A DNA stretch of 52,094 nt from a virus. Location of the stretch: positions 1 through 52,094 of IMG/VR virus record IMGVR_UViG_3300042923_000131. The stretch is one strand, 5' to 3'. Positions 7,847 to 34,951 of this stretch are shown here, piece by piece (position 1 is the first letter of the stretch; each line of letters begins with the position of its first letter). A program made the translations under genes and the position numbers. Under the pieces are notes generated by a model. The model was not told the DNA's origin. It ran no database searches and worked only from the letters and a program-made list of their open reading frames with translations.

Positions 7847-7875
7847 TTGACTTAAAGTACATAAAGTGATATAAT
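7847..7875 (+). promoter_or_regulatory. Promoter P4 (TTGACT-N17-TATAAT)
   Basis: The -35 is TTGACT 7847-7852, the spacer is 17 bp, and the -10 is TATAAT 7870-7875 preceded by GTGA. TGTAAG four bases after the -10 is a variant of the TGTACA seen at the same place in other promoters. Confidence 0.85.
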
Positions 7876-7923
7876 GAATGTAAGAAGAAAAACAAATATA
7901 AACACTCAGAGGAGAGATTGAAT

Positions 7924-8209: not shown

Positions 8210-8238
8210 CATATGAGGGAGAAATCCCTCAACATATG
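8210..8238 (+). other. Hairpin just upstream of the tRNA
   Basis: GAGGG/CCCTC (8215-8219/8226-8230) is extended by CATAT/ATATG (8210-8214/8234-8238) across a small bulge. Its 3' arm reaches the first base of the tRNA acceptor stem, so it may be a 5' processing signal or a terminator of the 7924 gene. Confidence 0.5.
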
Positions 8239-8311
8239 CAAGTGTAGTTCAATAGCAGAACAATGGCTTTCCAAGTCGCAGACGGTAGTTCGATTCTATC
8301 CACTTGCTCCA
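8238..8311 (+). tRNA. tRNA-Gly (anticodon UCC)
   Basis: The acceptor GCAAGTG (8238-8244) pairs with CACTTGC (8301-8307). The discriminator is T8308, usual for bacterial Gly, and CCA (8309-8311) is encoded. The D stem is GTTC/GAAC, the anticodon TCC (8270-8272) sits in a TTTCCAA loop, and the T arm GGTAG-TTCGATT-CTATC is normal. Two oddities are the 7-nt D loop (AATAGCA) without the usual GG and an A-C mismatch at the base of the anticodon stem. It reads GGA/GGG codons, which suits the Gly-rich phage structural proteins. Confidence 0.93.
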
Positions 8312-8342: not shown

Positions 8343-8371
8343 TTTACAAAGCAAAGCATTCGTGATATAAT
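8343..8371 (+). promoter_or_regulatory. Promoter P5 (TTTACA-N17-TATAAT)
   Basis: The -35 is TTTACA 8343-8348, the spacer is 17 bp, and the -10 is TATAAT 8366-8371 with GTGA before it. TGTACA lies at 8375-8380, four bases after the -10. The leader ends in AACACTTAGGAGAGTGG. Confidence 0.87.
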
Positions 8372-8415
8372 GATTGTACAGAAACAAACAAATAACACTT
8401 AGGAGAGTGGAGAAT

Positions 8416-33595: not shown

Positions 33596-33652
33596 AGTCG
33601 AAACTAGGGAAACCTAGTCCGTTGGAATTAGCCTACCAACGCTGAAGAGATT
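33596..33652 (+). ncRNA. Type II hammerhead ribozyme
   Basis: All hammerhead parts are present in circularly permuted order with stem II open. G12A13A14 is 33600-33602. Stem III (33603-33608/33613-33618, ACTAGG/CCTAGT) is closed by a GAAA tetraloop. C17 is C33619, so cleavage is expected between 33619 and 33620. Stem I is CGTTGG/CCAACG (33620-33625/33636-33641) with a 10-nt loop. The core CTGAAGA (33642-33648) matches CUGANGA. Stem II is AGTC/GATT (33596-33599/33649-33652) with the expected G10.1-C11.1 pair. TGG 33580-33582 and CCA 33655-33657 may extend stem II beyond an internal loop. It self-cleaves between the 33399 and 33676 genes. Confidence 0.9.
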
Positions 33653-33675
33653 GGCCAAGAAGGAGAAAATTAAAA

Positions 33676-34272
33676 ATGGAAAAAACACTAAAAGAAAAAA
33701 GGGATATCAATTTAGTAATGATAGACCAAGAAAAAAACCTATTATTAAATAAAAAAATGGGTGAGCACATCGAAGAGATTTTCGCTAGAGATATTTTTAG
33801 TACATATGATAGAACAAAAAGTACTCCTTTAGAAATTTCATTAGATGATATTTCTGAACTATTAAAAGGATATCCAAAGAGAGTAGGAGGAATTGAAGAA
33901 TTTGAAAGACAAGGAATTTTAATATGGGTAAAAGATGCTAAGCAAGATGATGACAAAGTTACTTTAATATTAACTGCAGAGATTAAAAATAATCAATTCA
34001 TGTCTATGCTAATGTCTGTTGCTGATTTTTATGGAAATATAGTTTTTACATCAAAGAATTATAATAAAGATACAAAACAATTTATTAATTGTGGATTATC
34101 TACTGAGCAGATGATTTATATTAAAAGAAACATAGAAAAAATGGCAGGTAAGGGAACTGGAGAAAATATTTTTGAAAACGAGAAAGCGAAAGAGTTTGCA
34201 AATACTTATGTTTTAAAAACTAAAATACCAGATGATTTGAAAGAAGAAATAGACAATATATTTAATTTATAA
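33676..34272 (+). CDS. Hypothetical early protein downstream of the ribozyme, 198 aa
   Basis: The family is unrecognised. The product is a mixed alpha/beta protein with a long N-terminal helix, a central beta part (VTLILTAEIKNNQFMSMLMS) and C-terminal helices. AGAAGGAG (33659-33665) lies just past the ribozyme, so cleavage at 33619 would give an mRNA with 5'-OH about 57 bases before ATG 33676. It sits between promoters P7 and P8. Confidence 0.7.
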   Translation: MEKTLKEKRDINLVMIDQEKNLLLNKKMGEHIEEIFARDIFSTYDRTKSTPLEISLDDISELLKGYPKRVGGIEEFERQGILIWVKDAKQDDDKVTLILTAEIKNNQFMSMLMSVADFYGNIVFTSKNYNKDTKQFINCGLSTEQMIYIKRNIEKMAGKGTGENIFENEKAKEFANTYVLKTKIPDDLKEEIDNIFNL

Positions 34273-34287
34273 TTAATAAATAAAAAG

Positions 34288-34316
34288 TGTACAAACTATC
34301 AGTTTTATGATATAAT
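34288..34316 (+). promoter_or_regulatory. Promoter P8 (TGTACA-N17-TATAAT)
   Basis: The -35 is TGTACA 34288-34293, the spacer is 17 bp, and the -10 is TATAAT 34311-34316. A second TGTACA lies at 34320-34325. TGTACA is its own reverse complement, so the two copies could be an operator pair. Confidence 0.87.
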
Positions 34317-34360
34317 GAATGTACAAACAAAGATATACTAGAATCGTAAGATAAACTAGA

Positions 34361-34386
34361 ATGCAGAGTTTTAATCGACTCTGCAT
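34361..34386 (+). other. 5' leader hairpin before the 34412 gene
   Basis: A perfect 9-bp stem ATGCAGAGT/ACTCTGCAT with an 8-nt loop lies between P8 and the AAAGGAGG ribosome binding site. It probably stabilises the 5' end of the P8 transcript. Confidence 0.65.
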
Positions 34387-34411
34387 AAAATACAAAAGGA
34401 GGCATAAGGAT

Positions 34412-34951
34412 ATGCTAGCAAACAAAACTGTTAAAGAATTAAGAGATATGGCTAAAGAGCTAGGAATTAAAGGTAGATGGGAAATGATTAAACCAGTATT
34501 GATTATGAAAATAATTGATGCGACAGAATCAATCAATAATACAACTTTGAGAGTAAACGGTGAGGAAACCAAAACTGAAACAGATACTAAGGTAAAAGAA
34601 GTTGAACTTATTAGTAAAGATACGGTAATTAAAGAAGAGAAACAAACCGAAAATACTAAGATTGATAACTATGATGTAGAGAATAGACTACATTACGTAG
34701 ACAAAGCACCTATTGGAACTCTTGTAGCTTTTAAAATTAAAGAAGAGAAAGACAAATATTGTTCTGCTAAGATAGTGAATAAATCAACAAAAAAGCAAGT
34801 TTTAAAAGTAGAGACTAAAAGAGGATTTATTTATATCATACCCTACACAGATATAGTTTGGGTAAAAACTGGTAAGCGTTGGCCAAGTGGAGTATTCGAT
34901 ATGCTAACTGGGGGTAAAAGATATGGCAAAAGTATTTCATCTAGGAAATAA
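34412..34951 (+). CDS. SAP/Rho-N-like N-terminal domain protein, 179 aa
   Basis: Residues 1-40 (MLANKTVKELRDMAKELGIK then a short extension and a helix) form a SAP/Rho-N-like helix-extension-helix. A Lys/Glu linker leads to a C-terminal beta domain (VDKAPIGTLVAFKIKEEKDK to YTDIVWVKTGKRW). It opens the replication operon from P8. The layout fits a DNA-binding replication accessory protein, but the C-terminal domain is unrecognised. ATG 34412 follows AAAGGAGG. Confidence 0.7.
   Translation: MLANKTVKELRDMAKELGIKGRWEMIKPVLIMKIIDATESINNTTLRVNGEETKTETDTKVKEVELISKDTVIKEEKQTENTKIDNYDVENRLHYVDKAPIGTLVAFKIKEEKDKYCSAKIVNKSTKKQVLKVETKRGFIYIIPYTDIVWVKTGKRWPSGVFDMLTGGKRYGKSISSRK

What the first reader, a model, noticed from the sequence alone, without database searches (positions are those of the whole stretch)
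33596..33652. Complete type II hammerhead ribozyme between two early phage genes
Seen: CUGANGA and GAAA cores, a GNRA-closed stem III, a 6-bp stem I, the G10.1-C11.1 pair and C at position 17 all occur in the right order for a hammerhead with stem II open. Known: hammerheads exist in bacterial and phage genomes and self-cleave. Inference: the phage cuts the transcript between the 33399 and 33676 genes, leaving a 5'-OH, ribosome-binding-site-proximal mRNA for the 33676 protein. This could separate expression of the two genes or protect the second message. Stem II is only 4 bp, so loop contacts or the TGG/CCA extension may matter.
Basis: partly seen in the sequence, partly recalled or inferred. 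Interest (0 to 1): 0.88.

Follow-up and report, generated by a model that had tools for sequence, protein, structure and literature searches.

The report
Type II hammerhead ribozyme in phage
A phage genome carries, between two adjacent genes, a complete self-cutting RNA of a known kind (a type II hammerhead ribozyme) that probably cuts the shared messenger RNA in two; the kind is known and common in phages, but its very tight placement between one gene's stop codon and the next gene's ribosome-binding site is worth testing.

Summary
Window 33591-33661 (+) reads as a full type II hammerhead: invariant core, 5-bp GNRA-capped stem III plus A15.1-U16.1, 6-bp stem I, open stem II, C17 at 33619. Nothing as good turned up in 300 dinucleotide shuffles. 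Rfam's Hammerhead_II model misses it, but it barely reaches cut-off on this ribozyme's own subfamily. A covariance model built from 24 other viral-contig ribozymes, without this one, finds it at 70.8 bits (E ~6e-19). Stem II is the family's 3 bp plus a possible A-U, not a TGG/CCA extension. The predicted cut is 33619|33620, leaving a hairpin on each new end and the downstream RBS free. Across 98 distinct type II hammerheads from viral contigs, 79 lie -1 to +6 nt from the upstream stop codon and most have a start codon 12-38 nt downstream; the window (6 and 24) is typical. Closest phage relatives lack this cassette. It is a new member of a known kind; cleavage and function are untested.

The parts
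33320..33348 (+). sigma-70-type promoter-like site TTTACA-17-TATAAT with extended -10, upstream of the 33399 gene
   Evidence: 11 of 12 matches; simple consensus scan in which such sites are no commoner than chance; the same -10 block TGATATAATGANTGTACAAAC recurs exactly at 34308
33399..33590 (+). upstream gene, 63 aa, unknown function; stop codon TAA 33588-33590
   Evidence: no family
33597..33599 (+). stem II 5' strand GUC (33599 = C11.1); preceded by A33596, invariant in the subfamily
33600..33603 (+). catalytic core GAAA (G12 A13 A14 A15.1)
33604..33618 (+). stem III CUAGG-GAAA-CCUAG with GNRA loop, then U16.1
   Evidence: 5 of 6 pairs change on both sides across the subfamily, 100% of cells paired; the A15.1-U16.1 pair never varies
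33619..33619 (+). C17; predicted cleavage between 33619 and 33620
   Evidence: position in alignment to R1; cleavage itself not tested
33620..33641 (+). stem I CGUUGG/CCAACG with 10-nt loop AAUUAGCCUA
   Evidence: all 6 pairs covary; 98.6% of cells paired
33628..33633 (+). pseudoknot 5' strand UUAGCC in loop I
   Evidence: 5 of 6 pairs with 33653-33658; one A.C mismatch (33630/33656)
33642..33648 (+). catalytic core CUGAAGA (C3 to A9, N7 = A)
33649..33651 (+). stem II 3' strand GAU (33649 = G10.1; 33651 makes a U.G third pair)
33653..33658 (+). pseudoknot 3' strand GGCCAA
33660..33665 (+). Shine-Dalgarno AAGGAG of the downstream gene
33676..34272 (+). downstream gene, 198 aa, no detectable relatives in the collections searched

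Best explanation
It is a type II (stem-II-open) hammerhead ribozyme of the pseudoknotted 22-nt stem-I subfamily common in phages. It is transcribed with the 33399 and 33676 genes and folds co-transcriptionally; the loop I/3'-tail pseudoknot aligns stems I and II, and the RNA cuts itself between C33619 and C33620. This splits the message into an upstream RNA that ends in the stem III hairpin 29 nt after its stop codon, with a 2',3'-cyclic phosphate, and a downstream RNA that starts 5'-OH at the stem I hairpin just before the Shine-Dalgarno sequence. Because both new ends are hairpins, the two messages would be separately stable and separately expressed. Shown here: anatomy, homology, covariation, placement. 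Inferred: co-transcription, cleavage of this sequence, end protection, uncoupled expression.
For: Core and stems complete; no equal in 300 shuffles. Held-out CM R1 scores 70.8 bits, E 6e-19, against 10.3 bits for L012, a pattern match without stems. 136 of 140 pattern matches (one of them the window) have stems I and III. The structure with pseudoknot shows 94.2% of cells paired and 16 of 21 pairs with two-sided changes, far above slid versions. Rfam calls subfamily mates Hammerhead_II. Stop codon 6 nt before stem II and ATG 24 nt after it, within the family's usual range. Type II hammerheads with a loop I/3'-tail pseudoknot, and processing of phage transcripts, were described with in vitro activity in PMC3088659.
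Against: No assay of this RNA. Three departures from the subfamily norm: U.G third pair in stem II, U at 33652 where nearly all other members have A, and an A.C mismatch in the pseudoknot. The possible fourth stem II pair could slow it; PMC3088659 reports that adding a stem II pair lowered activity in one construct. Without pseudoknot energy, an alternative helix GUCGA/UUGGC is favoured (-15.9 against -13.1 to -14.2 kcal/mol), though minimum-energy folds also miss stem II in many relatives. Closest phage relatives lack it, so conservation at this locus cannot be shown.
Confidence: 0.9

Rival explanations
1. A degenerate or very slow hammerhead: homologous to type II ribozymes but, through the pseudoknot mismatch, U33652 and the competing helix, cuts little in the cell.
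For: One pseudoknot mismatch and a U at the near-invariant A position; competing helix favoured without pseudoknot.
Against: Core perfectly kept and all core stems paired in an AT-rich phage where drift would erase them; 2 of 22 other members also lack a pair at the mismatched position, and L086 also has U there.
Confidence: 0.12
2. A regulated ribozyme: the competing GUCGA/UUGGC helix, or ribosomes terminating at the adjacent stop codon, keep it uncut until a signal or a fall in translation allows folding.
For: Strong alternative helix in this sequence; in 79 of 98 family members the upstream stop codon lies within -1 to +6 nt of stem II, inside a terminating ribosome's footprint (established knowledge).
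Against: No ligand-binding domain in the short gap; the alternative is extended by the same bases that depart from consensus and is not a subfamily feature; tight packing may just reflect genome compaction.
Confidence: 0.12
3. A plain three-way-junction leader or attenuator without catalysis.
For: The minimum-energy fold is such a junction.
Against: Would not explain the invariant unpaired core or the covariation of the hammerhead pairing and pseudoknot.
Confidence: 0.02
4. Chance arrangement of short stems and core words.
For: None beyond the absence of an Rfam hit.
Confidence: 0.005

Closest known systems
Hammerhead ribozyme type II (Rfam RF02276; Perreault et al. 2011, PMC3088659), pseudoknotted subfamily with 22-nt stem-loop I
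   Same: Circular permutation with stem II open, full core, GNRA-capped stem III, loop I/3'-tail pseudoknot, phage intergenic location.
   Different: Below detection by the Rfam model; AT-rich stems; U.G third stem II pair, U spacer, one pseudoknot mismatch. Single copy, not an array.
HHphage hammerhead variant of haloviruses HF1/HF2 (PMC3088659)
   Same: Lies a few nt upstream of a start codon in the early, replication-linked part of a phage genome.
   Different: A structural/core variant from archaeal viruses; the window's core is canonical.
Clustered hammerheads of prophages (Clostridium scindens, Azorhizobium, Agrobacterium; PMC3088659)
   Same: Hammerheads at gene junctions proposed to cut phage polycistronic RNA into single-gene messages.
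   Different: The window has only one copy; arrays occur in other contigs such as L003.

Membership tests
Hammerhead ribozyme | Core C3U4G5A6N7G8A9 ... G12A13A14 with A15.1-U16.1, G10.1-C11.1 and H17 | tested here: met
Hammerhead ribozyme | Three stems meeting at the core, supported by covariation | tested here: met
   stem III 100%, stem I 98.6%, stem II 100% of cells paired; stems I and III covary; stem II nearly invariant, so uninformative
Hammerhead ribozyme type II | Stems I and III closed by loops, stem II open | tested here: met
Hammerhead ribozyme type II | Loop I/3'-tail pseudoknot, common but not universal | tested here: met
   5 of 6 pairs in the window, one A.C mismatch
Hammerhead ribozyme type II (Rfam RF02276) | Score at or above Rfam gathering score 37 | tested here: not met
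   a curation threshold rather than a biological feature: the model gives only 37.0-46.9 bits to seven checked subfamily mates, and a held-out subfamily model gives the window 70.8 bits
Hammerhead ribozyme | Mg2+-dependent self-cleavage 3' of residue 17 | not testable with these tools
   needs in vitro transcription

The most novel reading that the evidence does not exclude
Type II hammerheads act as gene-junction punctuation in many phages, their folding tied to translation: the upstream stop codon is held within a few nt of stem II so that ribosomes finishing the upstream gene control whether the message is cut, and the type II permutation is favoured because it alone leaves a hairpin on both new ends. 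The window would be one single-copy case.
Probability: 0.2. Interest if true: 0.6.

Novelty: new member of a known kind. Interest (0 to 1): 0.36.

Why it matters
What bacterial and phage hammerheads do in the cell is still unproven. This locus is a clean single-copy test case: one ribozyme between two small genes, with a promoter-like site in front and another behind. The family-wide finding that these ribozymes sit almost exactly between a stop codon and a ribosome-binding site gives a concrete, testable hypothesis of per-gene mRNA processing, possibly coupled to translation. It also shows that the Rfam type II model misses AT-rich members.

Tried and rejected
Rfam scan of the window at gathering and permissive thresholds gave no hammerhead; treated as a sensitivity limit after checking subfamily mates. 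The weak preQ1-II and SNORD19B matches (15.7 and 14.9 bits against cut-offs of 47 and 50) were rejected. Search for the same gap in relatives by the 33676 protein failed in viral contigs, phages and GTDB genomes. The route through the primase gave seven viral-contig relatives (53-59% identical) plus three phage records, none with a hammerhead in front of the shared replication genes. Single-sequence folding does not favour the hammerhead fold, nor does it reliably do so for relatives, so it was not used as evidence either way. No type I or III hammerhead was seen in the window with a simple descriptor.

Full report
WHAT IS THERE. The + strand of 33591-33661 reads AAUAGA GUC GAAA CUAGG GAAA CCUAG UC CGUUGG AAUUAGCCUA CCAACG CUGAAGA GAU U GGCCAA GAA. 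That is a circularly permuted hammerhead with stems I and III closed and stem II open. The generic descriptor finds it once in the window and almost never in shuffles: 1 lenient and 0 equally good sites in 300 shuffles of both strands.

RFAM. cmscan gives no hammerhead at gathering level, permissively on 151 or 86 bases, or with RF02276 on the record. As a control, nine loci found by pattern were scanned. Seven members with the same layout are called Hammerhead_II by Rfam, but with only 37.0-46.9 bits against a cut-off of 37, and two AT-rich members (L013, L039) are missed as well. So the model has little margin for this subfamily.

RELATIVES. Of 140 matches in the sequences then held (one of them the window itself), 136 have paired stems I and III, which the pattern did not ask for. 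Twenty-four with the window's 22-nt stem-loop I were aligned without the window and a covariance model R1 was built. R1 finds the window at 70.8 bits, E 6e-19. The scoring is partly circular because the training set was fetched with the window's core, but pattern matches lacking the stems score 10.3 bits (L012) or nothing (L038), and given the core the window's other pairings have a chance probability near 1e-6.

COVARIATION AND PSEUDOKNOT. On 23 sequences, 94.2% of cells pair and 16 of 21 pairs change on both sides, against 30-40% of cells when the partners are slid. The pseudoknot between loop I and the tail just after stem II is part of this: 5 of its 6 pairs show two-sided changes, with 81% of cells paired. 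In the window it is UUAGCC/GGCCAA with one A.C mismatch. A33596, just before stem II, is invariant in the set although it was not in the search pattern.

PLACE AND ARRANGEMENT. The upstream gene (33399-33590, 63 aa) has a promoter-like site in front (33320-33348), whose -10 block recurs exactly at 34308, in front of the replication genes. Downstream is 33676-34272 (198 aa, orphan). The stop codon ends 6 nt before stem II; AAGGAG starts 1 nt after the pseudoknot strand; ATG is 24 nt after stem II. In 98 distinct type II hammerheads from the fetched loci (window included), the distance from stop codon to stem II is -1 to +6 nt in 79, and most start codons are 12-38 nt after stem II. The ORF calls were mechanical (longest open frame, simple SD match), and the controls were random positions and ends of long ORFs, so this is a strong tendency rather than a calibrated statistic.

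HOW IT WORKS. From established hammerhead chemistry the cut is 3' of C17 (33619). The left RNA ends with the stem III hairpin and a cyclic phosphate; the right RNA starts 5'-OH with the stem I hairpin, then the SD. Only the type II permutation leaves closed hairpins on both new ends. I infer separate, end-protected messages. Perreault et al. (PMC3088659) proposed cutting of phage transcripts into operon- or gene-length messages and showed activity of type II ribozymes in vitro, and of the Agrobacterium triple arrangement in E. coli; they state that functions remain unproven.

DOUBTS. Stem II has a U.G third pair, U33652 replaces a near-invariant A, and a competing GUCGA/UUGGC helix is favoured when the pseudoknot is ignored. 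The ribozyme might therefore be slow, or regulated. Seven viral-contig relatives found through the primase (53-59% identical) share the replication genes but not the 33399/33676 genes or the ribozyme. A more distant relative, Agathobaculum phage AB434P3, has a weaker hammerhead-like match (28.7 bits) at another junction. So the ribozyme cassette is accessory in this lineage.

VERDICT. The novelty lies in context and testability, not in the motif.

Noticed in passing
L003 8119-11327: Eight type II hammerheads in 3.2 kb of a viral contig, on the same strand and apparently one at each successive gene junction, with the ribozyme filling the gap from stop codon to next RBS.
   Followed up: partly
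98 type II hammerheads in the fetched loci and the window: Upstream stop codon within -1 to +6 nt of stem II in 79 of 98; in the 18 at -1 the UAG overlapping stem II (UAGUC) would itself be the stop codon.
   Followed up: partly
window 33340-33360 and 34308-34328 (weaker 8363-8383, 7867-7887): Repeated promoter/operator-like block TGATATAATGANTGTACAAAC, two exact copies; chance expectation 0.02 for matches with up to 3 mismatches.
   Followed up: partly
window 34361-34412: ORF 34361 probably starts at 34412 (SD AAAGGAGG); its first ATG lies in a hairpin ATGCAGAG...CTCTGCAT of the leader.
   Followed up: no
L131 1501-1573 (OP172634.1 34839-34911): Hammerhead-like variant in Agathobaculum phage AB434P3 with an extra base between CUGAUGA and stem II and a possible pseudoknot, just after a small ORF.
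   Followed up: partly
window 8238-8308: tRNA-like gene, 58.3 bits by Rfam.
   Followed up: no
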